A DNA stretch of 38,131 nt from assembly GCA_021787335.1 (NCBI GenBank), contig JAJYMC010000043.1:1-38131 (forward strand). The letters run 5' to 3'. Within the stretch, counting starts at the first letter, position 1. Each line of letters opens with the position of its first letter. This DNA is from Bacillota bacterium. GTDB taxonomy: Bacteria; Bacillota; Sulfobacillia; JAJYWN01; JAJZPE01. Positions 539 to 37,475 of the stretch are shown here, piece after piece. The notes below the pieces were generated by a model. That model was given only the letters and a program-made list of their open reading frames with translations. It did no database searches and had not been told where the DNA came from. Both the position numbers and the translations under genes were made by a program.

Positions 539-657
539 GCTAACAATGCCCCTTTCAAGAATCGTTGTCAGCCTCGGCCCTGCCCCGCTTGCAGTCGGGG
601 AACAGGTTGAGTGATGTCTGACTGACCACAAGGTAACCGAGCTGACCTTTGAACGGG

Positions 658-1557: not shown

Positions 1558-1558
1558 C

Positions 1559-2638: not shown

Positions 2639-2640
2639 GG

Positions 2641-8175: not shown

Positions 8176-8177
8176 GG

Positions 8178-10394: not shown

Positions 10395-10426
10395 GTCCCG
10401 CACCTCCTCGCCGGGCGAACGATTCG

Positions 10427-11206: not shown

Positions 11207-11220
11207 GACCAAACCTCCCG

Positions 11221-12810: not shown

Positions 12811-12861
12811 ATTCATCCCTTCTTGCGCGAGGAATCATCTGACGTTCTCTGGCTTGTTGCT

Positions 12862-15482: not shown

Positions 15483-15486
15483 GGGT

Positions 15487-17630: not shown

Positions 17631-17633
17631 GGT

Positions 17634-20083: not shown

Positions 20084-20100
20084 TCACCCACACTTTTCTA

Positions 20101-20275
20101 TCACGCGGAACAGCTTCGCCGGGGTGTCAACCACTCCCGGCGGTGGAGCTGACCGGGGCCATGACGGCTGACACGGGATACCGCTGGCCGTGCCATTGGG
20201 GAAGGCGGTAGGACGGACGGGGACGGTAACGGGGTGGCCGGGGCGACGGCCTAGGATCTTCTGTCATAACCGTCC
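20101..20275 (-). pseudogene. Internally deleted fossil of a paralogue of the gene at 21106-22827
   Basis: Three short blocks match separate parts of the intact gene to the right in the same order. 20221-20275 corresponds to about 21475-21525 and, on the minus strand, reads GHPVTV against GHPITV. 20171-20220 corresponds to about 21287-21336 and reads TAFPNGTASGI against TVFLNCVASGI. 20101-20162 corresponds to 21080-21141, including the last codons VMAPVSS and the stop. The intervening portions are deleted. The stretch fills the gap between the methyltransferase stop and the GT4 start, and encodes nothing intact. Confidence 0.75.
20105..20162. repeat. 58-bp direct repeat, copy A
   Basis: Matches 21084-21141 at 56 of 58 positions: 39 identical bases, a TG/CA difference, then 17 identical bases. 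It covers the end of a coding frame plus about 22 bp beyond the stop. With copy B it brackets the methyltransferase gene 20276-21058. Confidence 0.95.
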
Positions 20276-21058: not shown

Positions 21059-21083
21059 GTCGGTTCCCTCCCTGACCTCTCAG

Positions 21084-21141
21084 GCGGAACAGCTTCGCCG
21101 GGGTGTCAACCACTCCCGGCGGCAGAGCTGACCGGGGCCAT
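21084..21141. repeat. 58-bp direct repeat, copy B
   Basis: Second copy of the repeat at 20105-20162 (56 of 58 identical). It spans the last codons and stop (21106) of the surface-carbohydrate gene and 22 bp beyond. An inverted pair CGCCGGG/CCCGGCG within it could form a 7-bp stem but lacks a U tract. Confidence 0.95.
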
Positions 21142-22827: not shown

Positions 22828-23214
22828 GACTCTGTCACCTCCACCCATCCCAGCTTCACCCGGTTCCAAGACAGGACCGATCGGCCGATTGCCCGGAACC
22901 TGGGGGCGAAGCCCGCTTTCTGGATTCCGTCCAGTGAGGCTCGTTCACCAAGCGAACTCAAGACCCAGTCGACCAAACCCTCCTTTGCGAAACTAGCCGC
23001 AGCCTGCCGCGAGGCCAGCGGGCAAAACCCTCGCCCCCGAAGCAAAGAGGGTGTCCAAGTGTCGAAGAGAACCACGACTGCGCCAGCGCCCTGGTGATGT
23101 TACGGCGGCCCGAATCTCTTCAAGGTAGAATCGTTGAAAGTCGACGGCCCACAGAAAGTAGACCGGGACGTCCTCGGCTGTTAGGACCATCCCCTGGGCG
23201 TGGCCTCGGCTCAT
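22824..23214 (-). pseudogene. GNAT-like acetyltransferase remnant, frameshifted
   Basis: ATG 23214 opens a frame reading VYFLWAVDFQRFYLEEIRAA. Near 23085-23095 it must shift to another frame, which reads SRQAAASFAKEG, then ERASLDGIQKAGFAPRFRAIGRSVL, and stops at 22824. The ASL..I.KAGF pattern is the usual acetyl-CoA/motif-B end of GNATs. The stop overlaps the ATG of the next gene (ATGA), so this was once a translationally coupled operon member. In front of it a short frame (TTG about 23311 to TGA 23211, with SPEQAREAIDRLVLKRLG) also ends in an ATGA overlap with its ATG and may be the tail of yet another lost gene. Assignment rests on one motif. Confidence 0.5.
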
Positions 23215-23324
23215 GGTTGTCGGCCAAGTCGTTTGAGGACGAGGCGGTCGATGGCTTCGCGCGCCTGCTCGGGAGAGGTGAAACTGGTGCCCGCAAGGGC
23301 GCGGCGAGTCAATACTTAGGAGGT

Positions 23325-24200
23325 CTATTGGGACACGCATTGGGGTTGCCCAGCCATAATCCGCGAGTAGTACTCGTCTGGGCAGGCAAAAAGGTCCCTC
23401 AAGGGCGGTATTGTCTCGTCCACAAGAACTGGCCCGTTCGGCGATAGGTGGAACACCCGATAGCCGATTGATCCGAAAAGAGATAGCGTTTCCCTGAGAT
23501 CCGTCCGCTGCAAGTATTCAAACATGATCAGGTCTGGCCTGGCAACACGGAGAAAACGGAGGGCTCCCCGTAGGACAGCATTCTCGTGCCCCTCAACGTC
23601 AATCTTGATTACTTTCACCCGTGACAGTCCTAAACCAGCCTCGTCGAGGAATTGATCCAAAGTCGCTACAGTTACAACGCGCGTCGGGAAGCCGGTCTTA
23701 TCTCGGCTTGCAACGATTCGATTAGTTGTGTTAACACTGCCCCGATCCTCGAGATTTGCCTTCCCCGCAAAATCTGAAAGGGCCAATTCGTATACGTCAA
23801 ATGACAGCCGGTTGAGAAAAAGGTTCTCTCTTGCACGAGATGCGGCCTTCGGGTTTGGTTCAAAGAGAACCGCGTGGTCAACCCTGTCCGCAAGCATCAA
23901 ACTGATGCTACCAACATTTGCGCCAACATCCAGAAAGGTCCCGCCCCGCAAGTGCTTACGAAGGAAGCTGATCTCCCTGCCGTTCGGCATCCGACTATAC
24001 AGGAGGCTCGACGACACCGTGCAGTCTGGGTAGGCAATGAACTTATAACCGTTGAATAGCCTTACTGTCAGAGGTCTTGAGATAGTATGTTTCCAGAGCT
24101 GCCACCCGACAAAGGTGAGCAAGCGCCGAAAGCGTTGACCTCTGTTGAACTCGTCCCGCCAGATCGATGAGGTTATCCGCGCTAAGTCTAATACCCTCAT
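23325..24200 (-). CDS. FkbM family SAM-dependent methyltransferase
   Basis: A 291-residue FkbM-domain methyltransferase, a family that O-methylates sugars and polyketides. Motifs: GGTFLDVGANVGSISLMLADR (SAM-binding motif I), AVLFEPNPKAASRARENLFLN (acidic loop), VVTVATLDQFLDEAG, VKVIKIDVEGHENAVLRGA (the FkbM IDVEG signature) and LIMFEY. GAGGA precedes ATG 24200 at close spacing. ATG 24212 is an alternative. The open frame upstream to 24434 overlaps the tail of a decayed GT4 and is not part of the protein. It is AT-richer than the flanking GT genes, as is the other methyltransferase at 20276. It most likely methylates the exopolysaccharide repeat. Confidence 0.92.
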   Translation of the reverse strand: MRVLDLARITSSIWRDEFNRGQRFRRLLTFVGWQLWKHTISRPLTVRLFNGYKFIAYPDCTVSSSLLYSRMPNGREISFLRKHLRGGTFLDVGANVGSISLMLADRVDHAVLFEPNPKAASRARENLFLNRLSFDVYELALSDFAGKANLEDRGSVNTTNRIVASRDKTGFPTRVVTVATLDQFLDEAGLGLSRVKVIKIDVEGHENAVLRGALRFLRVARPDLIMFEYLQRTDLRETLSLFGSIGYRVFHLSPNGPVLVDETIPPLRDLFACPDEYYSRIMAGQPQCVSQ

Positions 24201-24201
24201 G

Positions 24202-24318
24202 CTATTCCTCATGAATGCCCAGAAGGAGTTGTTCCCATTGCTTGGCCACGTTGTCCCAATCGAACTGCCGGGCACGCAAGACCGCCGCGTTCCCCATCCG
24301 TCGCCGCAGACCCTGAGG
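24202..24318 (-). pseudogene. C-terminal tail of a lost GT4 glycosyltransferase
   Basis: Minus-strand translation ending at TAG 24202 reads LRRRMGNAAVLRARQFDWDNVAKQ and WEQLLLGIHEE, the canonical helix-rich end of GT4 proteins. It closely parallels the end of the intact GT4 immediately upstream (FNWDAVTKQWEEAFEAAV). The preceding 130 bp shows no GT4 donor-site motif, so only the tail survives. It sits between an intact GT4 and the FkbM gene, 1 nt before the latter's ATG. Confidence 0.72.
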
Positions 24319-24449
24319 TGACCAGGCCGAGACCCCTTGACGCCGCGGACGAATGCCGGAGAGGCCAGGCCATGAGGACGAGGGCATCGTAGCCTCTGGC
24401 CCAGCTCTAAGATTCGCCACGTCCTTTGCACCAATTAGGGGAATTCGGT

Positions 24450-25541
24450 TCATGTCTTGGCCCCCACCGCGGCTTCAAAGGCTTCTTCCCACTGTTTCGT
24501 CACGGCGTCCCAATTAAAGCTCTGGATGTGGCGGATTGCGGCCAAGCCCAAACGAAGGCGGAACTCATCGTCGTTGAGGAGGAGCCAGAGCCGCTCGGTC
24601 ATTTCATCCAGATCTTTCACTTGAAACCCCGTGACCCCATCTAACACCGAAGGCGTTCCGTAGTCGCGGAAGACGATGCAGGGTAGACCAGTGGCGGCGG
24701 CTTCAAGAGTCACTTTGGGGGTCCCTTCAAGCTGTGATGGTAAGACGAAAATGTCGCAGGCCCGCATCCATTGACTGACCTCCGGCTGGGACAGCCTCCC
24801 GTGAAAGGAAACGTGTCGTAGGTTCTCCTCTTGTTTGCGCTTCAACAAGGCATCGCGATAGGAAGTTGAACCTATAGCGTCGCCGATGACATGGAACTCA
24901 GCCCGTTGGGCGGGGATTCGCCGCGCCAGATCCAACAGGAGGTGGATCTGCTTGTGCGGCTGGATGGAGGCAACACACAAGACTTTCGCCGGTTCTTGGC
25001 GTCCGGCTCGGTCTGTTGGCGCAAACAACGAGGTGTCGACGCCGATAGGGATAGACCCTATCGTCATGCCGAATTCACGGAGCACGGTCTCAGCGACGAA
25101 TGGGCTTATGGCATAGGTGGCATCCGCAGTCCGCAACAGCTTCAGGAACCGGTCCATTATTTTTGGCGGGAGCGCCTCGATCTGCTGGGCCATTCCCTCT
25201 ACGGTCATCACAATTGCCTTTGGGGTCCCCAGCCAAGAGGCCAGATTGTACCAGACCAATAGATGATCCAACGGCGGGTAGAAGAGAATGTCGTAAGGTC
25301 CCCAGACCAGGTGGGGAGCGATGACGAGCGAACGAAGGCGGCGCGGCAGACGAATCAGTCTGACGCCGGGCCGATTCAGGAGTCTTGGGTCCGGCCGACT
25401 TGTGACAAAAAGGGTGCTCGTAAAACGCTTAGGATCGAGGCGAAGAGCCAGATCCCGAGCGTTCAGGCTTTGGGCGTTGGTGTTGTCGACGTCAGCAAAG
25501 ACGTTAAAAAGGACCCGTATCCGATTTAGCTTTCTTACCAT
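24450..25541 (-). CDS. Glycosyltransferase family 4
   Basis: A GT4 enzyme of 363 residues. It begins RIRVLFNVFADVDNTNAQSLNAR, with an Asn/Asp-rich acceptor loop in place of the usual Gly-Gly. It continues with TVEGMAQQ, YAISPFVAETVL and IPIGVDTSLFAP, then the donor domain VLCVASIQPHKQIHLLLDLA, FHVIGDAIGS, LPSQLEGTPKVTLEAAATGLPCIVF. ATG 25541 overlaps the stop of the broken methyltransferase (25535). The frame upstream to 25709 lies inside that pseudogene and was not used. The ribosome site is weak, so expression may have depended on coupling to the now-damaged upstream gene. Confidence 0.9.
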   Translation of the reverse strand: MVRKLNRIRVLFNVFADVDNTNAQSLNARDLALRLDPKRFTSTLFVTSRPDPRLLNRPGVRLIRLPRRLRSLVIAPHLVWGPYDILFYPPLDHLLVWYNLASWLGTPKAIVMTVEGMAQQIEALPPKIMDRFLKLLRTADATYAISPFVAETVLREFGMTIGSIPIGVDTSLFAPTDRAGRQEPAKVLCVASIQPHKQIHLLLDLARRIPAQRAEFHVIGDAIGSTSYRDALLKRKQEENLRHVSFHGRLSQPEVSQWMRACDIFVLPSQLEGTPKVTLEAAATGLPCIVFRDYGTPSVLDGVTGFQVKDLDEMTERLWLLLNDDEFRLRLGLAAIRHIQSFNWDAVTKQWEEAFEAAVGAKT

Positions 25542-26140
25542 TTGCGGGCAACACTCCATAACAAGGGGGAGAAGTGCGAATTCGGAACATTGTAGAGGTG
25601 CGCCAGCTTGAGCAGTTTCTGAGCCCCTCGGGACACGAGGTCCAGCGCACCGGGCAAGGAGTAGAAGGGGCGCCAGGTGACCCAGTAGTCGAAATAGAGC
25701 AAGTCGCACCGTTCAGAAAGGTACTTCCGGAGCAGGCCGGGGTGGTCGATAAGCTCCAGCTTGTGAGTGGCGTAGTCGGCCGGGTGAAAGTTCTTGATCA
25801 GCCAGCGATGGATCCCACGCACGTTGGGGAAAGACAAGACGAGAAGACCTCCGGCCCGCACAGGAGTCCCTGGCCAAGGAGATGGCGGAGGAATAGTCAA
25901 CCCCATGAACTTGATAGCCGAATTCCTTATGGAAATAGACCATCCAGCCCCCCGGAACGCACCCAATCTCGAGAAAGCGAAGGCCGTTCCCGTGGGGGAG
26001 GTACGTCTGAGCAGTGGATCGGCCTCGAAATGAGGTCCGCTGTATTTCTCGACTTTACGCCCCGCCCAAACATTGTCCCAGTATTCCTTGGACACGCCCG
26101 AGGTCGCCGCCATTCCCACTAGCCCGGCCTCCCAGTCCAC
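25535..26140 (-). pseudogene. SAM-dependent methyltransferase with frameshift and internal deletion
   Basis: The ends are intact: EYWDNVWAGRKVEKYSGPHFEADPLLRR at the N-terminus, then AGGLLVLSFPNVRGIHRWL and NFHPADYATHKLELIDHP. The middle is in another frame. Adding one base near 26018 gives RRYLPHGNGLRFLEIG, CVPGGWMVYFHKEFGYQVHGVDYS (motif I and the acidic loop). After about 25872 the sequence drops back to the first frame as AGGLLVLSF, with roughly 60-80 residues missing where motif II should be. As read, no functional methyltransferase is made. The stop overlaps the ATG of the following GT4, showing an originally coupled arrangement downstream of wzx. Confidence 0.82.
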
Positions 26141-26147
26141 GTCATGA

Positions 26148-27584
26148 TTAAGACCCTACCCGGATCGCCGCCCGCAGGTCACGTCCATTTAGCAAATCCA
26201 ACATCCAAACAGCGGCCAGGTAGACAAGGGCTCCAGCAATGACCTTGAACCCCACGTGTATCTGATAAGGCTGGAGGACAAGCAGGGCAATAGCCATTCC
26301 CCCGCTGGCCAGGAACGGACTGAGGAGGGACCGGCTGAAGGCACCCACCAGATAACCGCGTCCCATGGCCACCGCCGCCAGAGCCACGCTGCCCTGAGCG
26401 ACGGCCGTGGCGATGGCCGCTCCGATGCCGCCGAGGGGCGGGATGAGGACGACATTCAGAACCATGTTGACGACCGCCCCAATGCCTACCGCAAGGGCGT
26501 ATCGCCGGTGGTGGCCCGGAGCGTACAGGACCGCACCGGCAAAGAGGCTCGATAGCCCGCCGAGCGGGACCGCCAGCATCAGGACTCGGAAGGCGGGAGC
26601 CGACGCCGAGTACGAGGGACCGAGAACAAGGGCCACAAGGTCATCGGCGAGGAACGCGCCGCCCGCAGCCAGAGGAACCGAGACAACCGCAAGGACCAAC
26701 AGGCTCTTACGTATCAGCTGGCGGAACTCACCAGGGTCCCTGGCCGCAGTCGCAGCGGCGTAGGGTATGACCACCGAGGTTCCCATCGCGATGAACCCCA
26801 TTAGGGCCTCCATCAACCGGTAGGCGCCACCATACTGCCCCAAGGCGGCGGAACCTTTTAGCCAGCCGACCATGAGGTGGTCCGCTTTCTGGTAGACCAT
26901 GGACATGGCCGAAGCCATTCCATAGAACGAGGCCACCCGCAGGACATCCCGCCAATCCCCCGGGGACCAGCGGAGGCTTAGCCGGATGCCGGCCCGGCCG
27001 AGCCAGCGCCAGCCCACAAGACCGCCGGCCGCGGTGGCCACCAAGGCGAGGACCGGCAACAGCCAGACCGTCTCGGACCGGCGCAGCAGAAGAACCACGC
27101 CTCCGGTGGTAATCAACTGTGAAAACACCTGCAATAGCGCCACGCGGTCGAACCGTTGCAGGCCGGAAAAGACCCAGTCATTCGCGCATACAGAGCTGAG
27201 GACGAGGTTCAACCCCAGGAGGACGACAAGGGCGCGGGACGTAGGGTCGCGGGTCAGGACCGCAATGGGTCCGACGAGGCCGATGTAGCTCACCAGGGCC
27301 GCGGTGAGCAAGAGGGACAGGATGGGCGGTAGCAAACCGGCAGCCAGCTTCCGCCTGGCCGCCACCTGCTGCAGACCGTACGTCCTCAGGCCCGGGTTGG
27401 CCGCGACGCCGAAGAACCCCACCACCGCCTGGGCGTAGACCCATTTACCGTAGACCTCGGGGCCCAGGACACGGACCACGATGGGCAGGGTGATGAGCGG
27501 CAAGAGGTAGCCGAAAACCCTGGCTGCGGACAACCAGCCAACATTGGCGAGCCAATTAGGTTGCACCCGTTCGGCGCTTCCCAT
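26148..27584 (-). CDS. wzx: Wzx-type polysaccharide flippase (MOP superfamily)
   Basis: A protein of 478 residues with about 12-14 hydrophobic segments that translocates undecaprenyl-linked repeat units. The N-terminus NVGWLSAARVFGYLLPLITLPIVVRVLGPEVYGKWVYA is the typical Polysacc_synt first repeat. Later features include YGMASAMSMVYQKADHLMVGWLKGSAALGQYGGAYRLME, a glycine-rich central helix pair and VNMVLNVVLIPPLGGIGAAIATAVAQ. TAGGTG lies 8 nt before ATG 27584. ATG 27602 is also in frame. It follows the pse module after 97 bp and marks the change from AT-richer to GC-rich sequence. Confidence 0.92.
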   Translation of the reverse strand: MGSAERVQPNWLANVGWLSAARVFGYLLPLITLPIVVRVLGPEVYGKWVYAQAVVGFFGVAANPGLRTYGLQQVAARRKLAAGLLPPILSLLLTAALVSYIGLVGPIAVLTRDPTSRALVVLLGLNLVLSSVCANDWVFSGLQRFDRVALLQVFSQLITTGGVVLLLRRSETVWLLPVLALVATAAGGLVGWRWLGRAGIRLSLRWSPGDWRDVLRVASFYGMASAMSMVYQKADHLMVGWLKGSAALGQYGGAYRLMEALMGFIAMGTSVVIPYAAATAARDPGEFRQLIRKSLLVLAVVSVPLAAGGAFLADDLVALVLGPSYSASAPAFRVLMLAVPLGGLSSLFAGAVLYAPGHHRRYALAVGIGAVVNMVLNVVLIPPLGGIGAAIATAVAQGSVALAAVAMGRGYLVGAFSRSLLSPFLASGGMAIALLVLQPYQIHVGFKVIAGALVYLAAVWMLDLLNGRDLRAAIRVGS

Positions 27585-27681
27585 TGAGGGGGCACCTACC
27601 ATTCAATGGTCCGGTTCCGATTCAGCTCACCCATTCAATCTTCGGTGACGCTTCGACGTCCACCATCAAGGCCCCCTCGTC

Positions 27682-28416
27682 CTAGACCTGTTTTTGCTTC
27701 ACGGCGGCGTTGATGGCCATTAGAGTTGGATGCTGACGGACATAAGCCAGAATGGTCCTATAAGACATGAAACGCAACCCCAGGTCAAGGTCTTCATAAA
27801 CTTGCCTAATAAGCACCAAATCTTCCGGCGTATCGACAGTCCAGCGAAGGTCAGAGTTATCCTGGACATCCTTCACCGAGCGAACCAGGAACAGGTCCGG
27901 GCGCTCCTGCAGAAGGAAGAAGGTCACGTGTTCTCGCGCCGGACTCGACCGTGCCACTCTCCCGATTCGTTCAAGCGTATCACGGAAAAACGCCTCCACG
28001 TCCAGCCCACGAGGAAAAGTCCTTTCGACTGTATTCGCAGCGTAATCGCATTTGTCGGTGTGGCTCTCCAGTTCCAAGACAACTCGGTCGGTTTCTTCCG
28101 GATCAATAAGAGGACAATCGGAGGTGATTCTTACAGCAATATCGGCTGATGACTCGCGGGCAGCGCCGACGTATCGTGAAAGAACATCGTACTCGCTGCC
28201 GCGGAACCAGCGGACATCTTCGCCGCGAGCCAAAGCAACGATAGGGTCATCAGCGTCGTTAAGGGTTGTGGCTACCGTTATGTCATCAATTGCCCGACAC
28301 TGTTTGAGACGCTTCAATTGCTGGGTCAGCATCGGTCGACCCGCTACATCCATCAACACTTTCCCAGGTAGACGTGTCGAGGTCGTGCGAGCTTGGACTA
28401 TGCACACACGTCTCAT
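27682..28416 (-). CDS. pseF: CMP-nonulosonate cytidylyltransferase, SpsF/PseF type
   Basis: A 244-residue nucleotidyltransferase. It carries the CTP-binding N-terminus VQARTTSTRLPGKVLMDVAG, RGSEYDVLSRY, RITSDCPLIDP and RWTVDTPEDLVLIRQV near the C-terminus, the pattern of SpsF from Bacillus spore-coat loci and of PseF/NeuA-like CMP-sugar synthases. It activates the nonulosonic acid made by the synthase at 28413 with CTP. Its ATG overlaps the synthase stop (ATGA), so the two are translationally coupled. Activity on pseudaminate rather than legionaminate is inferred from the neighbouring PseB/PseC/PseG/PseI, not from this protein. Confidence 0.9.
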   Translation of the reverse strand: MRRVCIVQARTTSTRLPGKVLMDVAGRPMLTQQLKRLKQCRAIDDITVATTLNDADDPIVALARGEDVRWFRGSEYDVLSRYVGAARESSADIAVRITSDCPLIDPEETDRVVLELESHTDKCDYAANTVERTFPRGLDVEAFFRDTLERIGRVARSSPAREHVTFFLLQERPDLFLVRSVKDVQDNSDLRWTVDTPEDLVLIRQVYEDLDLGLRFMSYRTILAYVRQHPTLMAINAAVKQKQV

Positions 28417-29483
28417 TCCTGGCTCATCCTTCGGGAATTACCAATAAGGTCCCATGAAAGTGGCGTACCCCGCTGGATGTCCCTGGTCGCCTGCCGACCG
28501 ATGATATCTCCCAGGTAGCGGGTATGTAGACCGCATGCCGGGCGAATGGACCGCACGTTTCTCAAGGTGAATACTTCTTCGGCCCTAATGTCTTCGATGA
28601 CAAACAGGGAGCGTCGATAGGCACGGCTCGTAGCCTCACCTGCGCTTACCCCATAATGAACTGCGCCCAAGGCTTTCTCCGTCGACCGAACCGCCTGTAC
28701 CATCGCTCGGAATTCGTGTGGCTCCAGTGAGAAAACGCTGTCAGGCCCACCCGCGGCTCGGGACATAGTAAGGTGCTTCTCTATAATGCATGCGCCCAGG
28801 GCGACGGCCGCCACCGGCACAGCCAAGTCCAAGCTGTGGTCTGAAAGTCCTACCGGCAGCTCAAAGCCATCGGCCAAGTGAGGAATGGTCCTAAGGTTCA
28901 TCTCCTCAGGGGGAGCGGGGTAAGCGCTTGTGCACTTTAGCAAGGCCACTTGGCTCCCACCCGCCTCACGAATTGTTCGAACAGCTTCGTCAATCTCGGC
29001 CAGTGTCGCCATACCTGTGGAGACAATAATCGGCTTGCCGGTTAGGGCTGCCTTTCGCAGTAACGGTAGGTCCACGACCTCAAATGAAGCGATCTTGAAC
29101 GCCGGAACACCCATCCCTTGTAGGAAATCAACTGCCGCATCGTCGTAGGCGGTGGAAAACAGCTGCAATCCCAGCTCATCGGCAATCTCCTTGAGCCGAG
29201 GTTGCCAGTCCCAGGGCGTACAAGCCTCCAAATAGAGGTCATGAAGGGTACGCCCCTCCCAAGGTGGGCTTGTGACTTTGAAGCATTCATTGTCGGACTT
29301 GAGCGTTAGCGTATCTGGCGTATAGGTCTGGAGTTTGACCGCATCAGCACCCGCCGCTTTGGCTGCTTTCAGGATCGTCACCGCTTGCTCGAAGTCATGT
29401 CGGTGGTTGGCTGAAAGCTCAGCAATAATGTAAGTTGGATAGCCCTGCCCAATCCGGTGATCGAGGATGGTTATATAGTCCAA
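28413..29483 (-). CDS. pseI: Pseudaminic acid synthase
   Basis: A 356-residue NeuB-family enzyme that condenses a 2,4-diacetamido-trideoxy-hexose with phosphoenolpyruvate. Motifs: YIIAELSANHRHDFEQA, ADAVKLQTYTPDTLTL, FKIASFEVVDLPLL, PIIVSTGMATLAEIDEA, LLKCTSAYPAPPEEMNL, VGLSDHSLD and IIEKHLTMSRAAGGPDSVFSLEP. The GGPDSVFSLEP form is characteristic of PseI rather than sialic acid synthase. A C-terminal SAF antifreeze-like domain follows (RSLFVIEDIRAEEVFTLRNVRSIRP). The start is TTG 29483 with GGGAGAG 8 nt upstream. Confidence 0.95.
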   Translation of the reverse strand: MDYITILDHRIGQGYPTYIIAELSANHRHDFEQAVTILKAAKAAGADAVKLQTYTPDTLTLKSDNECFKVTSPPWEGRTLHDLYLEACTPWDWQPRLKEIADELGLQLFSTAYDDAAVDFLQGMGVPAFKIASFEVVDLPLLRKAALTGKPIIVSTGMATLAEIDEAVRTIREAGGSQVALLKCTSAYPAPPEEMNLRTIPHLADGFELPVGLSDHSLDLAVPVAAVALGACIIEKHLTMSRAAGGPDSVFSLEPHEFRAMVQAVRSTEKALGAVHYGVSAGEATSRAYRRSLFVIEDIRAEEVFTLRNVRSIRPACGLHTRYLGDIIGRQATRDIQRGTPLSWDLIGNSRRMSQE

Positions 29484-29542
29484 GTGCTCATCTCTCCCAT
29501 CCTGGCTTTATCGGCCCTTATGCCTCATGGGCACCAAGGTCT

Positions 29543-30286
29543 TCAATCATTCAGCCAAAGGTGAAAAGTGTGGCCCGAGGTCTGAATTTCGAAGCCGAGC
29601 CGTTGCCATACGCGTTGCACGGCATAGTTATTGACCTGGGTGCCCACTTCCATCTCGCCAAATCCTCGTTCTAAGCACCACTGCATGCCTCTGACCATGA
29701 ACGACCGGTAAATGCCTAGCCCCTGAGCCTTAGGAGCCACACCGAAGAGAGCCCCTTCCACTGATACAGCGTTTAGCACCTTTAACGTAGCAAACCCCTG
29801 CAGGTCTCCATCTCTGTCCGCCACGAGCACCTCGTCAGCTAGATTCCTATCACGGCAGGAGTTAACCGCCCATTCCGAATAGACCGAGTCACATGTCTCC
29901 CGATCCAGTCTGGGATCGCTATGGAAATGCCCCACGTAGCCCTTGAATGAGTCGCGGGCTACATCATGGATCTTGGGAATGTCATCGGGTTGGAAGGGAC
30001 GTATCGGGATTACTCCGGAATCAACTGGAATGGTTTTCTTAGCAAACGAGAAAGTATAATGCACAAACGTATCCATTAGTAGGAACATGTGGTGCTGCAA
30101 TTCGTGTACGACTGCGACGTTACTGGTGTCGCAGCGTGCCATCAGAAACTTGACGCCTTGGTCTCGGGACCAATCGACAGCTGTTTGTATGTCCGACACG
30201 TTCTCAGGAGCGAACCGGGCCATCCTAAGACCAAAATGGTTAGTATCCCACGACAATAACTGAGCTTGGCGAGCTGTCTCGGACAC
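29543..30286 (-). CDS. WecD-like GNAT acetyltransferase in the PseH position
   Basis: A 247-residue protein whose start is LLSWDTNHFGLRMARF and whose centre is SFKGYVGHFHSDPRLD. These match WecD/RffC-type N-acetyltransferases that act on 4-amino-4,6-dideoxy nucleotide sugars. The GNAT core is DEVLVADRDGDLQGFATL, GALFGVAPKAQGLGIYRSFM and EVGTQVNNYAVQRVWQRLGFEI. By position it should N-acetylate the 4-amino group of the PseC product, a step done by PseH elsewhere, yet it is not PseH-like in length or motifs. GTG 30286 has GGGGAGG 8 nt upstream, directly after the pseG stop. An alternative acyl donor is possible. Confidence 0.85.
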   Translation of the reverse strand: MSETARQAQLLSWDTNHFGLRMARFAPENVSDIQTAVDWSRDQGVKFLMARCDTSNVAVVHELQHHMFLLMDTFVHYTFSFAKKTIPVDSGVIPIRPFQPDDIPKIHDVARDSFKGYVGHFHSDPRLDRETCDSVYSEWAVNSCRDRNLADEVLVADRDGDLQGFATLKVLNAVSVEGALFGVAPKAQGLGIYRSFMVRGMQWCLERGFGEMEVGTQVNNYAVQRVWQRLGFEIQTSGHTFHLWLND

Positions 30287-30289
30287 GTT

Positions 30290-31336
30290 CTAGTCCTCCC
30301 CGCCTAGCTTACTGAGCATAGCCTGGATGACTCTCTGGCTTCCCAGACCGTCCACCAGGTCCTTGCCCGCAACGCTGAAACGACGCCTTAGGCCTTCGGC
30401 GTAAGCTAGAAACTCGATTCGCTCAGCCAGGGTCCTTGAATCCACTTGCGTGGCCCATCCTGCACTTTGACAAACACCTTGCTCTTCCAACCGCCTGACC
30501 GCCCCTTCTTGGTTCTCGGCCAAGACCAACGTCACACTTGGCAACCCCATAAAGGCCAGCTCCCACAGGGTGCTACCGCCGGCGGAGACGCTCATGTCGG
30601 ACCAAGCCATCAGCTCCGCCATGTTGGCAGGGTTACGGTGGAATTGCACGGTCAAGGGCAAACCCCTGACTATCGATACAAGTTCATCAAGATGTCGGTT
30701 ATCCGGCCCCACTGCAACGGCTATTTCAAGCCCCTCTATGGTCAATAGCTCTAGCGCTCGAAGTACCAACGCGGTAGCGTTGTCGGTGTCAGTTCCCCCC
30801 ATAGTCACAAGCACCTTGGTAGCCACAGGTGCGATTTGTCGTCGCCACTTTCGCCAGGCTAGAAACTCCGGCCTCAGCAGCACGTAGCGGATACCTAACA
30901 GTAGTAAGGTGTCGGCTTCTGTCCGGTAGGCTAATTGGTCAGCATTGATATTCTGGTTAAGCAGTACGCTTGCATAATAATGAGGGAGAAGCGCATTGTC
31001 ATCAATGACTAACAATTCATGGCCCGTGGCTCTTAGTGCCTTCTGATAAGACTGGTCAAAGTGGTATCCGTCCAAGACAAGCCACGGACGTTGGTGGTCA
31101 TGAGCAGCAATGTTGTCAAGCACTCTGAGGGTAGTATTCAGGTCATCAGGGTCAGGGTGCAGTTTATCTAGGGCGGCGAAGGTGAGGTGGGTCGCCTCGA
31201 TTTTCCGGCGGAGCGCGTCGCCTTGACAACGGCTCACAAACTTAGCCTTCCCGCCATGGGCAAGCCAGGCCTGACCTAGCGCCAGACATCTCATTACATG
31301 GCCGGTTCCCACATCGGTGCCGGCGTCGGCCCGCAT
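30290..31336 (-). CDS. pseG: UDP-2,4-diacetamido-trideoxy-altropyranose hydrolase
   Basis: A 348-residue PseG/SpsG-family protein that removes UDP from the pseudaminate precursor before condensation with PEP. The N-terminal RADAGTDVGTGHVMRCLALGQAW holds the conserved GxGHxMR motif with the catalytic His. Later come LVLDGYHFD, VTMGGTDTDN, VAVGPDN, SAGGSTLWELAFMGLPSVTLVLAENQ and the closing DGLGSQRV. It has GT-B-like (MurG-related) architecture. No good ribosome site is visible in front of ATG 31336. GAGAAG better suits an in-frame CTG at 31342, so the first residues are uncertain. It lies between pseC and the WecD-like gene. Confidence 0.92.
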   Translation of the reverse strand: MRADAGTDVGTGHVMRCLALGQAWLAHGGKAKFVSRCQGDALRRKIEATHLTFAALDKLHPDPDDLNTTLRVLDNIAAHDHQRPWLVLDGYHFDQSYQKALRATGHELLVIDDNALLPHYYASVLLNQNINADQLAYRTEADTLLLLGIRYVLLRPEFLAWRKWRRQIAPVATKVLVTMGGTDTDNATALVLRALELLTIEGLEIAVAVGPDNRHLDELVSIVRGLPLTVQFHRNPANMAELMAWSDMSVSAGGSTLWELAFMGLPSVTLVLAENQEGAVRRLEEQGVCQSAGWATQVDSRTLAERIEFLAYAEGLRRRFSVAGKDLVDGLGSQRVIQAMLSKLGGED

Positions 31337-31361
31337 GACCAGGTGGGGAAGCTTCTCATTA

Positions 31362-32552
31362 TCAGACGGTATAGTACGTCACCACTTTAGACACGGCTGA
31401 GATTACGTTCCCCACGTCAGCGTCGGTCATTTGCGGAAAGATAGGCAATGAGATGATCTGCTCGTACGCCAGCTCGGCCACGGGGCATAAACCAGGCCCA
31501 GTACCAAGACGCTTGCGATAGTAGGGATGCAGGTGCACTGGGACGTAGTGAACATTGACCCCGATGCCCTCCGCCCTGAGAGCCGAAAAAATCGCACTCC
31601 GATCCACATTCAGCCTCGTCAGGTCAAGCCTGACAACATAGAGGTGATAACCGTGGGACACACCTTCTCTGACGGCTAGTGGGCTAACCGCATGCAGACT
31701 GGCGAAGGCGTCATTGTAACATCTTGCGATGGCTTGCCGACGAGCAACCCAATCCGACAGCTTGTGCAGTTGGCTAATCCCCAAGGCACATTGAAAATCG
31801 GTCAACCGGTAGTTGTAGCCTAGATCGACCATCTCATAAGACCAAGAGCCCGCGGCTTCGCGTTGCCGATGGTCGCTGGTAATACCGTGGTTCCTGAAAA
31901 CCCGTATCCGCTGAGCCAGGTTGGCCTCACCCGTTGTGATGGCCCCACCTTCCCCGCTGGTCATGTTCTTCACCGGATGCAGGCTGAAGGTATTAAGATC
32001 AGCGAGGGTGCCTACCGATTTTCCCTTGTAGCTTCCCCCTAAGGCGTGGCACGCGTCGGCAACTATGGCCAAATTATAATGTTCAGCTATCGCCGTCAAA
32101 GCATCATAGTCACAAGGCTGGCCCGCGTAATCTACAGCTATGATAGCCTTTGTCCGTTTGGTGATCTTGGTCTCGACTTGAGCCGGGTCGAGCAGTAACG
32201 TTCCTGGTTTTACGTCGGCGAAAACCGGGGTGCCTCCCTGGTAAACAACACAATTAGCGCTGGCGGCAAAAGTCATGGCTGGTACTATGACTTCGTCCTC
32301 CGGTCCAATTCCCAGCGCATACATAGCTGCGTGCAACGCTGCCGTCCCGCTGCTGACTGCGACCGTTTCTCTGGCGCCCGTCCAATGAGCAAACGCTTTC
32401 TCGAATTGACCCACTTTAGGACCAGTCGTCAACCAGTCGGATTGCAGTGTTTCTATGACGGCGGCGATGTCATCCTCGGTTATCCATTGCCGGCTATAGG
32501 GAAGCATGGTCTGACGTATGGGCCGGCCCCCATGAATTGCAAGCTCAGTCAA
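31362..32552 (-). CDS. pseC: UDP-4-amino-4,6-dideoxy-N-acetyl-altrosamine transaminase
   Basis: A 396-residue PLP-dependent DegT/DnrJ/EryC1 aminotransferase that aminates C4 of the PseB keto product using glutamate. Signatures: MLPYSRQWITEDDI, SSGTAALHAAM (phosphate site), VPAMTFAASAN, ADACHALG with Asp166 for the pyridine nitrogen, and FSLHPVKNMTSGEGGAI with the Schiff-base Lys195. The C-terminal region IGVNVHYVPVHLHPYYRKRLG is typical of PseC. TTG 32552 overlaps the pseB stop by 8 bases, with GGAGG 9 nt upstream. All catalytic positions look intact. Confidence 0.95.
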   Translation of the reverse strand: MTELAIHGGRPIRQTMLPYSRQWITEDDIAAVIETLQSDWLTTGPKVGQFEKAFAHWTGARETVAVSSGTAALHAAMYALGIGPEDEVIVPAMTFAASANCVVYQGGTPVFADVKPGTLLLDPAQVETKITKRTKAIIAVDYAGQPCDYDALTAIAEHYNLAIVADACHALGGSYKGKSVGTLADLNTFSLHPVKNMTSGEGGAITTGEANLAQRIRVFRNHGITSDHRQREAAGSWSYEMVDLGYNYRLTDFQCALGISQLHKLSDWVARRQAIARCYNDAFASLHAVSPLAVREGVSHGYHLYVVRLDLTRLNVDRSAIFSALRAEGIGVNVHYVPVHLHPYYRKRLGTGPGLCPVAELAYEQIISLPIFPQMTDADVGNVISAVSKVVTYYTV

Positions 32553-33549
32553 TTGCTTCTACCTCCGCCAGACCAACCATCGAACGTAATTCCTCGACCG
32601 ACAGCCATTGTGGGTTAGTGTCACTGCCATAACAGAAACCATCTGGGCACGGCCGACCACCGGTTTGCCGGGCATAGTTTTGGATGCCCCCGCTCTCGGT
32701 GACCGGCAATACCATAAAGTAGTCATCATACTCGACCGCGTGCCAGGCATCGGCCTCCGGTACCATTACCTCATGCAATTTCTCCCCGGCTCTGATTCCA
32801 ACCACCTTGATCTGGCACTCCGGAGCGATGGCCCGGGCTAAGTCTATTATCCTTATACTAGGAATCTTCGGCACGAAAACCTCACCGCCATGCATTCGCT
32901 CGAGAGACTCCAAAACAAAGTTCACACCTTGCTCAAGGGTGATCCAGAAGCGAGTCATCCGTGTATCCGTAATCGGGAGCACACCTGTTTCACGTGCTCT
33001 GGTAAAAACGGGAACCACACTTCCGCGGCTGCCGACCACATTGCCATATCGCACGACACTGAATCTAGTGACGTGTTGACCCGAGTAACTGTTGCCAGCC
33101 ACGAATAACTTGTCAGAGCACAGTTTGGTGGCGCCATAGAGATTAACGGGGTTGGCCGCCTTGTCAGTGCTTAATGCCACTACTTTCTGTACACCCCGGT
33201 CTATAGCCGCATCTATGACGTTGGCTGCGCCAAGGATATTAGTCTTGATTGCCTCCACCGGGTTGTACTCGCAAGCTGGAACCTGTTTCATCGCCGCAGC
33301 GTGGACCACCACATCCACATCGTCAAAGGCTCGGTATAAGCGATCTCGATCGCGAACGTCACCAATAAAGTAGCGCATACACGGGTATTCGCCATCCGGG
33401 AATTTCTGATGCATTTCAAATTGCTTCAGCTCATCGCGGCTGAACACGATGAGCTTTCTTGGATGATACCGCTGCAGCACAATTTCAACGAACTTCTGGC
33501 CGAATGAACCTGTTCCACCGGTCACGAGCACCACTTTATCGTCGAGCAC
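32545..33549 (-). CDS. pseB: UDP-GlcNAc 4,6-dehydratase (5-inverting)
   Basis: A 334-residue extended SDR that makes UDP-2-acetamido-2,6-dideoxy-4-keto-altrose, the first step to pseudaminic acid. From GTG 33549 it reads (V)LDDKVVLVTGGTGSFGQKF, the exact N-terminus expected for PseB. GGGAGG lies 9 nt upstream. ATG 33570 is in frame but has no ribosome site. Catalytic elements: VVVHAAAMKQVPACEYNP, LSTDKAANPVNLYGATK (Tyr and Lys kept, unlike the CapD-type protein upstream) and RYGNVVGSRGSVVP. Length and motifs are standard. It begins the AT-richer pse module after a 247-bp spacer. Confidence 0.95.
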   Translation of the reverse strand: MLDDKVVLVTGGTGSFGQKFVEIVLQRYHPRKLIVFSRDELKQFEMHQKFPDGEYPCMRYFIGDVRDRDRLYRAFDDVDVVVHAAAMKQVPACEYNPVEAIKTNILGAANVIDAAIDRGVQKVVALSTDKAANPVNLYGATKLCSDKLFVAGNSYSGQHVTRFSVVRYGNVVGSRGSVVPVFTRARETGVLPITDTRMTRFWITLEQGVNFVLESLERMHGGEVFVPKIPSIRIIDLARAIAPECQIKVVGIRAGEKLHEVMVPEADAWHAVEYDDYFMVLPVTESGGIQNYARQTGGRPCPDGFCYGSDTNPQWLSVEELRSMVGLAEVEAID

Positions 33550-33591
33550 TGCATCCGCCCTCCCGGTCATGGGACCAAAGTATCGGCGACA

Positions 33592-33796: not shown

Positions 33797-35695
33797 TCAC
33801 TTGGTCATGGCAGCGTTCTCCTCGATGACGCCCCGTAGAAGACTGAGGGTCGAAACCGTGTTTAGCGGCTCGAGGACCTCCTTGAGATCGGACCATGAAG
33901 CCTCCAGGTTCTGGGCCATGTAAATACGGTCGTGGCTGGTCGGCACATGGACTTCCTCCCCGGAAACCAGTTTCTCGTGGACCTTCTCCCCTGGGCGTGT
34001 GCCGGTGTAGGTGATCTTGATGTCCCTATCGGGGGTGAACCCAGAGAGCCTGATCAACTGGCGGGCCAGCCAGTCGATGCTCACCGGCTTGCCCATTTCG
34101 AGGAGAAAAACCTCGCCGCCCTCGCCCATCCCCCCGGCCTGCAGCACCAGGGCCACGGCCTCGGGGATGGTCATGAAGTAGCGGGTCATCTCAGGGTGGG
34201 TCACGGTCACCGGGCCGCCGCGGGCGATCTGCGCTTTGAATATCGGGACGACGCTTCCCGCGCTGCCGAGGACGTTCCCGAAGCGGACGGAAACGAAACG
34301 GCAGGGGGCCGAACCGTTGTACCCCCGGATGAGCATCTCGGCCATCCGCTTGGTCGCCCCCATGACGCTCTTGGGATTGACGGCCTTGTCCGTCGAGATG
34401 AGGACGAACCGCTTGGCGCCGTATCGCGCGGCCATGTCGGCGACGTTCTTCGTCCCGTACACGTTGGTCTTGATGGCCTCTTCGGGGTAGGCCTCCATCA
34501 GCGGAACATGTTTGTGGGCCGCCGCATGGAAGACGACCGTCGGCCGGAACGTCCTGAAGACGTTCTCAATCTTGGTCCTATCCCTGATATCGGCGATGAT
34601 GCTCGTCCGTTTCAGCGCAATATAGCTGGTCCCCAACTCGAGGTCGAGTTCATAGACCTCGTTTTCATGGTTATCCAGCATCAGCAACGACTCGGGCCGC
34701 AGCCGGGCGATTTGCCGGCACAGCTCGGACCCGATGGAGCCGCCGGCCCCGGTCACCAGGACCCGCTCGCCCTCGAGGTAGGCGGCGATTTCGGCCAGGT
34801 TCACCCGGACCGGTTCGCGGCCGAGCAGGTCCTCCAGGGAAACCTCGCGGATCTGGCTCACCGTGACCTTGCCGTCGATGAGTTCATATACCCCCGGCAG
34901 GGTCCTTATCTTGACTCCGAGCGCGGCGCACTCCTGGACCACCCGCCGCACGGGCGCGGTCCCAGCCGCAGGCATGGCCACGATGACCTCGTTGCAGGCC
35001 AGCCGCTGGGCGATGGTCTTGAGGTCATCGCTGGTGCCAAGAACGGGCACGCCGTTGATGCGCAGCCCACGCTTGCGCGGGTCGTCATCGACGAACCCGA
35101 CCGGCTTGTACCCCAATTCGGGGTGCCGCTGCAGCTCGCGCAGGGTCATCGCCCCGGCCTGGCCGGCCCCGACGATGATGACCCGCTTGGGGTCGCGCAG
35201 ATCACGCATGTCGGCCACGACCTGGAGCCGCCTGGCGATGCGGATGGACATCCGCCCGCCGGCCAGGGCCAGGAAGTTGAAGAACAGAGCCATCAGGACG
35301 ACGCTGCGCGGGAAGCCGTGCGTCGGCGGCAGGTAAAGGAGCATTGCTAGGGCTACAGCGCTGACCCCCGCCCCTTTAGCCGCGGCCAAGGCCTCGTCGA
35401 CGCTGGCGTACTCCCAAATGCTGTTGTAAAGCCCTAAGAAGTAAAAGGCTATGAGGCAAACTATTGTGTAGGGCGCGGCCACGACGAAGTACTGCTGGAA
35501 GTACCTCCAGGGCACGTCCCCGTCGAACCGAAGGATGAGGCCGAAGGTGACCACCAGGTTGATGGCCACGGCGTCATAGGCCAACATGACGAGCTTCTTG
35601 GCCACCGGGCTCAACCGGTCCCAGAGCCGCCCCTGGGCCTCAACGGCCTGTCCCATCTTCACTTTTGCCTTGACGTCAATCTGTCTGACTGCCAC
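33797..35695 (-). CDS. Membrane UDP-HexNAc 4,6-dehydratase, CapD/PglF/WbpM type
   Basis: A protein of 632 residues from GTG 35695 (AGGTGG 6 nt upstream). Four hydrophobic segments fall at about 36-56, 72-92, 108-125 and 131-148. A CoA-binding-like Rossmann domain follows (VIIVGAGQAGAMTLREL, near 172-188), then the catalytic extended SDR: VLVTGAGGSIGSELCRQIA (about 312-330), VVFHAAAHKHVPLMEAYPEEA, LISTDKAVNPKSVMGATKR and RFGNVLGSAGSVVPIF. The active-site Tyr is replaced by Met (VMGATK), the known feature of WbpM/PglF-type retaining dehydratases. It should feed UDP-4-keto-6-deoxy-GlcNAc to aminotransferases or reductases for bacillosamine, FucNAc or QuiNAc. It corresponds to epsC in Bacillus eps order. 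The in-frame extension to 35944 crosses the terminator and is considered non-coding. Confidence 0.93.
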   Translation of the reverse strand: MAVRQIDVKAKVKMGQAVEAQGRLWDRLSPVAKKLVMLAYDAVAINLVVTFGLILRFDGDVPWRYFQQYFVVAAPYTIVCLIAFYFLGLYNSIWEYASVDEALAAAKGAGVSAVALAMLLYLPPTHGFPRSVVLMALFFNFLALAGGRMSIRIARRLQVVADMRDLRDPKRVIIVGAGQAGAMTLRELQRHPELGYKPVGFVDDDPRKRGLRINGVPVLGTSDDLKTIAQRLACNEVIVAMPAAGTAPVRRVVQECAALGVKIRTLPGVYELIDGKVTVSQIREVSLEDLLGREPVRVNLAEIAAYLEGERVLVTGAGGSIGSELCRQIARLRPESLLMLDNHENEVYELDLELGTSYIALKRTSIIADIRDRTKIENVFRTFRPTVVFHAAAHKHVPLMEAYPEEAIKTNVYGTKNVADMAARYGAKRFVLISTDKAVNPKSVMGATKRMAEMLIRGYNGSAPCRFVSVRFGNVLGSAGSVVPIFKAQIARGGPVTVTHPEMTRYFMTIPEAVALVLQAGGMGEGGEVFLLEMGKPVSIDWLARQLIRLSGFTPDRDIKITYTGTRPGEKVHEKLVSGEEVHVPTSHDRIYMAQNLEASWSDLKEVLEPLNTVSTLSLLRGVIEENAAMTK

Positions 35696-35998
35696 TCGGT
35701 ACCACCTGCTCCCCTTGTGGAGGCTGGCTACCGGTGGCCCGGGCGCATCTGACGCGTCCGACCAAAAAACCGGCAGCCAGGCACATAATAGTGCTAGAGC
35801 TGTCGGTTTCACTACTGACTCCACGCCGGCCAAGTGACCATGTACAGACGGCGTTTCCTCGTCCCAGCTATCCCCCTGCCCCAACCCACGGGGTGACGCT
35901 ATTGGGTTTTTGAGCAGCCTCCGGGCTCGAGTGGCCTCAGGCATTCAGTTGTCTGTGCCGGCGCCTCTGCGGGCGCCTATGTCGTTTGTTGCGGCGCC
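35696..35998 (-). promoter_or_regulatory. Long untranslated leader between the kinase and capD-type genes
   Basis: No homologous protein frame is seen in this 303-bp stretch. It contains three copies of GGCGCCT just after the kinase stop (35960-35966, 35972-35978, 35993-35999), able to form alternative GGCGCC pairings; an AACCCA/TGGGTT stem (35883-35888 with 35903-35908); and an intrinsic terminator (35764-35807) about 70 nt before the capD-type GTG. The position equals that of the EAR antitermination RNA between epsB and epsC in Bacillus subtilis. I cannot confirm EAR sequence similarity by eye. Attenuation or processive antitermination control is the working hypothesis. Confidence 0.5.
35764..35807 (-). 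terminator. Intrinsic terminator/attenuator upstream of the capD-type gene
   Basis: On the minus strand, ACCGACAGC (35807-35799) pairs with GCTGCCGGT (35777-35769) with one mismatch. An inner GCAC/GTGC helix (35794-35791 with 35784-35781) closes a 6-nt loop, and a run of six T follows (35769-35764). Stem, loop and T tract fit an intrinsic terminator that would stop read-through from the kinase gene into the rest of the operon. Confidence 0.75.
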
Positions 35999-36703
35999 TT
36001 ACCGGCGCTTCTTCTCCCCGCCCTCGCCGTAGTAGTAGTAATAATAGCCCTTCTCGCGGTCGGTGAGGGCGCCGTCCAGGACCACCCCGAGGAGGTTGGC
36101 CTTGACGTTGGCCAGCAGTTCCTTGGCCCGCTGGGCCTGCTTGTAGCTGACCTTGCCGGCCGCCACCACCAGGAGGACGCCGTCGCAGACGCTGGCCAGG
36201 ACAGCCGCGTCGGTCACCGCCCCGACCGGCGGCGAGTCGTAGATGACCGTGTCGGCCCGCTCTTCAAGGGCGGCCATGACGCTCTTCATCCGGTCGGAGG
36301 CCAGAAGCTCGGCCGGGTTCGGCGGCATCGGGCCGGACGGGAGGAGCCGCAGCCCGCGGGTCCTGGTGTTCACCAGGGCGTGGTCGAGCGACGCGGCCCC
36401 GGAGATGACGGTGGTCAGGCCCTGCCGCTCATGGACCCCGAAGATCTCGCAGAGGGTCGGCCGGCGCAGGTCGCTGTCGATGGCGATGACCTTCTTGCCC
36501 GCCTGGGCCATGGTGATGGCCAGGTTGGCCACGGTCAGGGTCTTCCCTTCGCGCGGCGACGCGCTGGTCACGACGACGCTCCGGAGGGTCTTGTCGAGGG
36601 TCAGGAACTGAAGGTTGGTGCGCAGTTCGCGGTATGATTCGGAGACCGGGGAACGCGGGCTGAGGCTGGTCACCAGCTTCTCGCCGTTGGTTTCCTTGGC
36701 CAA
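35999..36703 (-). CDS. BY-type tyrosine kinase (CpsD/YwqD/EpsB-like)
   Basis: A 234-residue cytoplasmic bacterial tyrosine kinase of the Firmicute type, separate from its membrane activator. Features: the N-terminal SPVSESYRELRTNLQF helix, Walker A ASPREGKT (48-55), Walker A' VIAIDSDLRRP (73-82), Walker B VIYDSPPVG (153-161) and a C-terminal autophosphorylation cluster of six consecutive Tyr (220-225) before a basic end. It phosphorylates itself and probably other exopolysaccharide enzymes, controlling chain length with the YveK-like partner 13 bp upstream. TTG 36703 has AGGAGGT 7 nt before it. Confidence 0.95.
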   Translation of the reverse strand: MAKETNGEKLVTSLSPRSPVSESYRELRTNLQFLTLDKTLRSVVVTSASPREGKTLTVANLAITMAQAGKKVIAIDSDLRRPTLCEIFGVHERQGLTTVISGAASLDHALVNTRTRGLRLLPSGPMPPNPAELLASDRMKSVMAALEERADTVIYDSPPVGAVTDAAVLASVCDGVLLVVAAGKVSYKQAQRAKELLANVKANLLGVVLDGALTDREKGYYYYYYGEGGEKKRR

Positions 36704-36716: not shown

Positions 36717-37475
36717 TTATTTGACGGCCTTTATCCCGCCGCCGCGTTCTTTGTCCGCCGCCACCTCGGCCTGGGCGGGCGGCCTCCCGTATCTCGCCTC
36801 CTGGCGGAGGTCGATGACCGGGATGGTCCCCAGGACGGGCAGGTCCAGGTAGCGCCGCACGTCCTCGGGGGACTTGACCGTGTTGTCGAGGTACTCGAGG
36901 ATGAAGGCCAGTCCGACCCCGACCATGATCCCGAGCACGCCGGCCACGGCCATGTTCAGCTTCGGCCTGGGCTTCACCGGCGCCACCGGGGCGATGGCCG
37001 GGTCGACGACCTGGACGTTCTCGACCTTCATTATCACGACGACCTGCCGGATGAAGTCCTTGGCCACGGCGTTGGCGATGAGCGCCGCCTGGGTCGGGCT
37101 GGTGCTCTCGGCGCTTATCTGGATGAGCTGCGTGTCGCGGACCGCGTTGACGTGAACGGTCCCCTGCAGCTCGGCCGCGGTCATGCCGAGTTGGAGTTCT
37201 GCCAGGACGTGCTCGGCCACCGTCCGGCTCTTGGCGATTTCGCCGTAGGTCTTCACCAACTGCTGGTTCATCAGCAGGGTGGAGTAGTCGATGGTCGGAG
37301 AGTCCTTCTTGATGACCATTAGGCTTGTCGACGCAGAGTAGATGGGTTCGATGAAGAAGTAGCTTATGACTCCGCTGGTCGCCACGGCGACGACGGTCAC
37401 GAGGACGATGGCCCAGAAGCGGCGGCGGATTATGTTGAGGTAGTCGCGCAGGTCGATGACGTCTTGCTCTTCCAT
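36717..37475 (-). CDS. Wzz/YveK-family chain-length regulator and kinase activator
   Basis: A 252-residue polysaccharide co-polymerase. An N-terminal cytoplasmic segment (EEQDVIDLRDYLNIIRRRF) leads to TM1 at about 21-41. A roughly 130-residue extracytoplasmic domain has YSASTSLMVIKK and STSPTQAALIANAVAKDFI. A Pro-rich stretch (VAPVKPRPKLN, about 164-174) precedes TM2 at about 174-194. The C-terminal tail continues into LDNTVKSPEDVRRYLDLPVLGTIPV, the part that activates the tyrosine kinase. GGAGGG lies 6 nt before ATG 37475. It corresponds to EpsA/CapA. Confidence 0.95.
   Translation of the reverse strand: MEEQDVIDLRDYLNIIRRRFWAIVLVTVVAVATSGVISYFFIEPIYSASTSLMVIKKDSPTIDYSTLLMNQQLVKTYGEIAKSRTVAEHVLAELQLGMTAAELQGTVHVNAVRDTQLIQISAESTSPTQAALIANAVAKDFIRQVVVIMKVENVQVVDPAIAPVAPVKPRPKLNMAVAGVLGIMVGVGLAFILEYLDNTVKSPEDVRRYLDLPVLGTIPVIDLRQEARYGRPPAQAEVAADKERGGGIKAVK

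What the first reader, a model, noticed from the sequence alone, without database searches (positions are those of the whole stretch)
35696..35998. Terminator-bearing leader in the EAR position between kinase and capD genes
The order YveK-kinase-leader-CapD mirrors epsA-epsB-EAR-epsC. The sequence shows a good intrinsic terminator 70 nt before the capD-type start plus repeated GGCGCCT boxes and another stem. If transcription of more than 30 kb of downstream genes depends on passing this terminator, a processive antitermination RNA or another attenuator is expected here, outside Bacillales and in a GC-rich host.
Basis: partly seen in the sequence, partly recalled or inferred. Interest (0 to 1): 0.72.

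Follow-up and report, generated by a model that had tools for sequence, protein, structure and literature searches.

The report
Cyclic-di-GMP switch inside a slime operon
The leader is not a Bacillus-type EAR element but a standard c-di-GMP-II riboswitch whose terminator overlaps the sensor, so it is predicted to let the cell make its exopolysaccharide only when the biofilm messenger cyclic di-GMP is high.

Summary
The RNA upstream of it is a full-length c-di-GMP-II riboswitch aptamer (Rfam RF01786, window 35875-35792, 64.0 bits against a cut-off of 53.5). It is not an EAR/epsC element: RF01735 scores nothing in the window or in 154 genomes of the class, while the same search finds it in B. 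subtilis.

The 5' arm of the terminator consists of the 3' strands of the aptamer's pseudoknot and P1. The bound aptamer and the terminator therefore exclude each other, which predicts an ON switch: c-di-GMP gives read-through into capD and about 35 kb of polysaccharide genes. A second genus of the family has the same order (Wzz, kinase, c-di-GMP-II, CapD) and the same terminator arms with a different loop. The third family genome shows neither the riboswitch nor a close kinase homologue.

The genome has 11 GGDEF matches and six other c-di-GMP riboswitches. The class is known. The intra-operon location in an EPS cluster, where B. subtilis has EAR, is the new part. Similar RNAs head EPS-type clusters in other Bacillota genomes. 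Ligand binding and termination were not tested. The GGCGCC boxes are not conserved.

The parts
35792..35875 (-). c-di-GMP-II riboswitch aptamer (RF01786), positions 1-84 of 84
   Evidence: cmscan 64.0 bits, gathering score 53.5, E 3.4e-12 in the whole window and 4.5e-14 in the leader alone
35799..35810 (-). shared segment GAAACCGACAGC: 3' strands of the pseudoknot and P1 of the aptamer, and also the 5' arm of the terminator (the mutually exclusive element)
   Evidence: fold; identical in G002; stem 5' arm found by script
35766..35810 (-). intrinsic terminator hairpin with U6 tract at 35771-35766
   Evidence: arms identical in G002 and loop different
35834..35839 (-). loop strand GGUCAC of the pseudoknot, pairing with GUGA..CC (35812-35809 and 35806-35805)
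   Evidence: 100% paired in 24 class members, with compensatory changes in many rows at two of six pairs and in a single row at a third
33797..35695 (-). CapD-type sugar-nucleotide dehydratase (CoA_binding_3 + Polysacc_synt_2), first gene behind the switch; GTG start
   Evidence: Pfam, NCBIfam, start by comparison with G002
35999..36703 (-). polysaccharide-synthesis tyrosine autokinase, gene before the switch
   Evidence: TIGR01007 209 bits, over its cut-off
36717..37475 (-). Wzz/YveK-type chain-length/kinase-modulator protein
   Evidence: Pfam Wzz and GNVR over cut-off
104..33570 (-). downstream polysaccharide cluster, all on the minus strand: PseB, PseC, PseI, Wzx-type flippase, glycosyltransferases, O-antigen ligase/Wzy_C, polysaccharide deacetylase, UDP-sugar dehydrogenase, heparinase II/III-type lyase, PF00953 sugar-1-phosphate transferase
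   Evidence: Pfam and NCBIfam
35702..35715 (-). conserved ribosome-binding region of capD (AGGGGAGCAGGUGG)
   Evidence: identical in G002

Best explanation
The leader is a c-di-GMP-II riboswitch that works as a transcriptional ON switch inside an exopolysaccharide operon. RNA polymerase arrives from the upstream Wzz and kinase genes (or from a weak local promoter) and transcribes the aptamer. If c-di-GMP is scarce, the segment GAAACCGACAGC leaves the aptamer, pairs with GCUGCCGGUUUU, and the polymerase stops at the U tract 71 nt before capD. If c-di-GMP is high, the bound aptamer holds that segment in its pseudoknot and P1, the terminator cannot form, and capD and the following biosynthetic genes are transcribed. 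Shown by sequence and comparison: aptamer identity, overlap of aptamer and terminator, conservation of both in a second genus, and presence of diguanylate cyclase genes. Inferred: ligand binding, termination, direction of the response, and read-through from the upstream genes.
For: RF01786 full-length hit over the gathering score. All 15 invariant columns of 24 class aptamers are present here; the pseudoknot pairs in 100% of the 24, with compensatory changes in half or nearly half of the rows at two of its six pairs. Terminator 5' arm lies inside the aptamer's 3' strand. The same design is general: 81 of 104 c-di-GMP-II loci carry a U-tract stem of at least 8 pairs with the last 24 aptamer nucleotides, against a mean of 22.8 with shuffled downstream sequence. 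G002, another genus of the family, has Wzz (72% identity), kinase (81%), the aptamer (62.7 bits) and CapD (75%) in the same order with identical terminator arms and a different loop. 11 GGDEF matches in the own genome. Published precedent: all four C. difficile type II switches are induced by c-di-GMP (PMC3649979); the c-di-GMP-I switch Bc2 of B. thuringiensis works by ligand-driven anti-termination (PMC4933901).
Against: No binding, RNA-seq or termination data. Unconstrained MFE folding favours the terminator and shows no aptamer, as expected without ligand and pseudoknot. P1 is imperfect: five contiguous pairs, with mismatches in the outer part. The exact arrangement is seen in two genomes only; 80 CapD loci elsewhere have no aptamer match and 20 kinase loci of the class have no Rfam match.
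Confidence: 0.88

Rival explanations
1. EAR-like processive antitermination RNA: the leader modifies RNA polymerase so that it ignores terminators further down the operon, as EAR does for epsC-O in B. subtilis.
For: Same position, behind the kinase gene and before the capD/epsC-type gene; a terminator follows. EAR lies between the second and third eps genes and antiterminates distal terminators (PMC7858274).
Against: No RF01735 hit in the window, at E<=1 in the leader, or in 154 class genomes while the B. subtilis control rings. The sequence is fully used by a c-di-GMP-II aptamer plus its own terminator. Terminator-like sites downstream are fewer than expected by chance.
Confidence: 0.03
2. 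Same riboswitch with its own promoter, so that capD onwards is a separate transcription unit and the Wzz-kinase genes belong to another.
For: A spacer of about 120 nt between the kinase stop and the aptamer leaves room for a promoter; a short block (GGGTTGGGGCA) just before the aptamer is conserved.
Against: No sigma-70-type match in the spacer here and none anywhere in the G002 contig; the -35/-10 region is not conserved. A head leader conserved with G002 precedes the Wzz gene and could serve the whole operon. The scan covers only one promoter type.
Confidence: 0.35
3. Terminator is an ordinary end of the Wzz-kinase transcript, and the aptamer-like sequence is a decayed relic.
For: Imperfect outer P1.
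Against: Aptamer core, pseudoknot and terminator arms conserved in another genus while flanks diverge; score well over the cut-off.
Confidence: 0.03
4. OFF switch: ligand binding promotes termination.
For: Some c-di-GMP-I switches repress, e.g. those before flagellar genes (general knowledge).
Against: Here the aptamer consumes the terminator's own 5' arm; four C. difficile type II switches activate (PMC3649979).
Confidence: 0.05

Closest known systems
c-di-GMP-II riboswitch (RF01786), e.g. C. difficile Cdi2_4 before pilin gene CD3513 and Cdi2_3 before CD2831
   Same: Aptamer sequence, secondary structure and pseudoknot; predicted positive control of a surface/biofilm function
   Different: Target is a whole exopolysaccharide biosynthesis cluster rather than a single adhesin or pilin, and the switch lies inside the gene cluster; expression platform is an overlapping terminator, not a group I ribozyme as in the C. 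difficile CD3246 example
EAR / epsC RNA (RF01735) of Bacillales
   Same: Sits between the kinase gene and the capD/epsC-type gene of an EPS operon; acts on transcription termination
   Different: No sequence or structure match; predicted to sense c-di-GMP and act on one adjacent terminator, not processively
Bc2 c-di-GMP-I riboswitch of B. thuringiensis (cap gene)
   Same: Works like it: ligand-driven anti-termination, ON switch (PMC4933901)
   Different: Different aptamer class and a single adhesin gene as target

Membership tests
c-di-GMP-II riboswitch (RF01786) | Covariance model score over the gathering score, full length | tested here: met
   64.0 bits vs 53.5, positions 1-84 of 84
c-di-GMP-II riboswitch (RF01786) | Pseudoknot between hairpin loop and 3' strand | tested here: met
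   GGUCAC with GUGA-AA-CC; 100% paired in 24 relatives with compensatory exchanges
c-di-GMP-II riboswitch (RF01786) | Invariant core nucleotides | tested here: met
   All 15 columns invariant in 24 class members (this one included) are present here
c-di-GMP-II riboswitch (RF01786) | P1 helix closing the aptamer | tested here: met
   AGCUG/CAGCU plus scattered outer pairs; outer P1 imperfect
c-di-GMP-II riboswitch (RF01786) | Lies upstream of genes linked to c-di-GMP-controlled functions | tested here: met
   EPS cluster downstream; 11 GGDEF matches in the genome
c-di-GMP-II riboswitch (RF01786) | Binds c-di-GMP | not testable with these tools
   needs in-line probing
EAR / epsC (RF01735) | Covariance model match | tested here: not met
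   no hit; B. subtilis control positive
EAR / epsC (RF01735) | Position between the kinase and capD/epsC-type genes of an EPS operon | tested here: met
EAR / epsC (RF01735) | Processive antitermination of distal terminators | not testable with these tools
   no excess of terminator-like sites downstream

The most novel reading that the evidence does not exclude
The EPS operon is gated in two stages: a family-specific structured leader with a terminator-like stem at its head (window about 37860-37770), and the c-di-GMP-II switch in its middle. The chain-length and kinase module would then be made in advance, and only the costly biosynthetic module would wait for c-di-GMP.
Probability: 0.25. Interest if true: 0.65.

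Novelty: new member of a known kind. Interest (0 to 1): 0.5.

Why it matters
If true, c-di-GMP controls transcription of a Wzx/Wzy-type exopolysaccharide operon directly through RNA, with no protein receptor, in an uncultured Bacillota-type lineage. It would also mean that two unrelated RNAs, EAR in Bacillales and c-di-GMP-II here, were placed at the same point of EPS operons. An earlier survey noted that signalling molecules were candidate ligands for the epsC RNA (PMC2864571); here a signalling-molecule riboswitch does occupy that place. The searches I ran in an open-access library found no paper linking c-di-GMP-II to an EPS operon, but that library lacks most subscription journals.

Tried and rejected
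EAR: no RF01735 match. GGCGCC boxes as regulatory repeats: not enriched in the window and absent from the relative. Conserved occurrence of the arrangement outside the family: none in 80 CapD loci from genome contigs with my model R1, none by Rfam in 20 kinase loci of the class or in 12 of the CapD loci. The 715-aa reading frame that runs open through the riboswitch (35944-33797) was rejected as the CapD start, because the G002 homologue begins at the GTG equivalent to 35695. The swapped-downstream control (91 real against 53 swapped) is not a clean null, since the aptamer 3' end is itself conserved; I used the shuffled control. A 20-nt pattern for the operon-head leader found only the two family members without mismatch. 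The key structural paper on c-di-GMP-II is not in the library, so ligand contacts were not checked residue by residue.

Full report
OBSERVATION. On the minus strand the window reads: a 61-codon ORF (37675-37490), a Wzz/YveK-type gene (37475-36717), a tyrosine autokinase (36703-35999), a 303-nt spacer, a CapD-type gene (35695-33797), then some 25 more genes, all on the minus strand, to the end of the contig. The window is a whole contig, G000:C19, of a 3.55-Mb genome in 65 contigs. The spacer holds an intrinsic terminator, hairpin 35810-35766 with six U, 71 nt before the GTG start of capD. The start is supported by the aligned N-terminus and ribosome-binding site of the relative G002. The GGCGCC boxes are real but neither enriched in the window (26 found, 31.8 expected) nor conserved.

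WHAT IT IS. Rfam finds one family in the window, c-di-GMP-II (RF01786), at 35875-35792 minus, full length, 64.0 bits, E 3.4e-12; nothing else reaches E 1 in the leader apart from lower-scoring matches of the same clan. Among 24 class members of at least 51 bits, 15 columns are invariant. With the pseudoknot written in, 84.7% of pair cells are standard against 63.0% in shuffles, and the pseudoknot pairs in 100% of sequences; two of its six pairs change on both sides in half or nearly half of the rows, and a third in a single row. The nested Rfam structure line shows no pseudoknot, so this is support beyond what the model scores. The epsC/EAR model has no hit here or in 154 class genomes, and does hit B. 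subtilis.

HOW IT WORKS. The terminator's 5' arm, GAAACCGACAGC (35810-35799), is aptamer positions 66-77, that is most of the 3' strand of the pseudoknot plus the inner 3' strand of P1. Aptamer and terminator cannot coexist. Ligand that stabilises the aptamer should therefore prevent termination. This is an inference, but the layout is general: 81 of 104 c-di-GMP-II loci examined carry such an overlapping U-tract stem of at least 8 pairs, against 22.8 on average with shuffled downstream sequence; in the class set it is 21 of 24. Published type II switches of C. difficile activate their genes (PMC3649979), and a c-di-GMP-I switch in B. thuringiensis works by ligand-driven anti-termination (PMC4933901). 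The genome has 11 matches to GGDEF, so it probably makes c-di-GMP.

CONSERVATION. G002, another genus of the same family, has Wzz (72% identity), kinase (81%), a 62.7-bit aptamer and CapD (75%) in the same order. Between the two, the aptamer core, the terminator arms and the capD ribosome-binding site are nearly identical while the terminator loop and the rest of the spacer differ. G003, in the same genus as the window, has no c-di-GMP-II hit and only a distant kinase match (E 9e-12), so it seems to lack the whole cluster. Outside the family the arrangement was not found: 80 CapD loci and 20 kinase loci were negative.

WIDER PICTURE. c-di-GMP-II occurs in 42 of 154 class genomes and 108 of 398 genomes sampled from the phylum. 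By eye, most first genes downstream in the class encode proteins with signal-peptide-like N-termini; this was not tested with profiles. Polysaccharide targets recur elsewhere: in G187 the switch heads Wzy_C/O-antigen ligase, Wzz, kinase, CpsB/CapC and CapD (L303), and in G248 mannose-1-phosphate guanylyltransferase, phosphomannomutase and a glycosyltransferase (L238). G102 of the own class has two genes read by eye as glycosyltransferases behind it. The survey used tblastn with window proteins and first-gene reading, so more may exist.

OPEN POINTS. Whether transcription enters from the kinase gene or from a local promoter is undecided. No sigma-70-type site was found in the spacer in either genome and the region is not conserved, which leans towards read-through, but other promoter types were not scanned.

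VERDICT. The finding is a c-di-GMP-II riboswitch at the EAR position of an EPS operon: a new member of a known class in a notable place, probably an ON switch.

Noticed in passing
window 37860-37770, minus; G002 contig C133 (L112) near 4165-4179: Operon head: structured leader conserved with G002, a long-range AGAGAG/CTCTCT stem around a GAGTTGGTC/GACCGATTC hairpin, then CAGGAnAAGG and a T run, terminator-like. No Rfam match; fold energy not better than shuffles; a 20-nt pattern of it is exact only in the two family members.
   Followed up: partly
window 37675-37490, minus: 61-aa ORF with two cysteine pairs (CxC and CxxC, zinc-ribbon-like), conserved in G002 between that leader and Wzz; no Pfam or NCBIfam match.
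   Followed up: partly
window 38007-37989, minus: Box ATTATGAAAAGCAGGAATT, conserved in G002 upstream of the operon; its 18-nt core TTATGNAAAGNAGGAATT is found once in the own genome.
   Followed up: partly
L114 (G000:C47:9048-9134): Second c-di-GMP-II riboswitch of the own genome, before a small secreted-looking protein and a protein with a sub-threshold WxL-interacting domain match.
   Followed up: partly
L314 (G000:C38:70272-70369) and L315 (G002:C21:3695-3791): c-di-GMP-I riboswitch after genes read by eye as type IV pilus assembly genes and directly before a prepilin-like gene in the own genome; the same class of RNA lies after similar genes in G002. The own genome has five c-di-GMP-I matches in all.
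   Followed up: partly
L130 (G079:C31:4128-4211 and 4292-4377): Tandem c-di-GMP-II aptamers about 80 nt apart before one gene.
   Followed up: no
window 28000-34000: G+C drops to about 53-56% over the pseudaminic-acid genes against about 65% elsewhere, suggesting a separately acquired sugar module.
   Followed up: no
   Followed up: no
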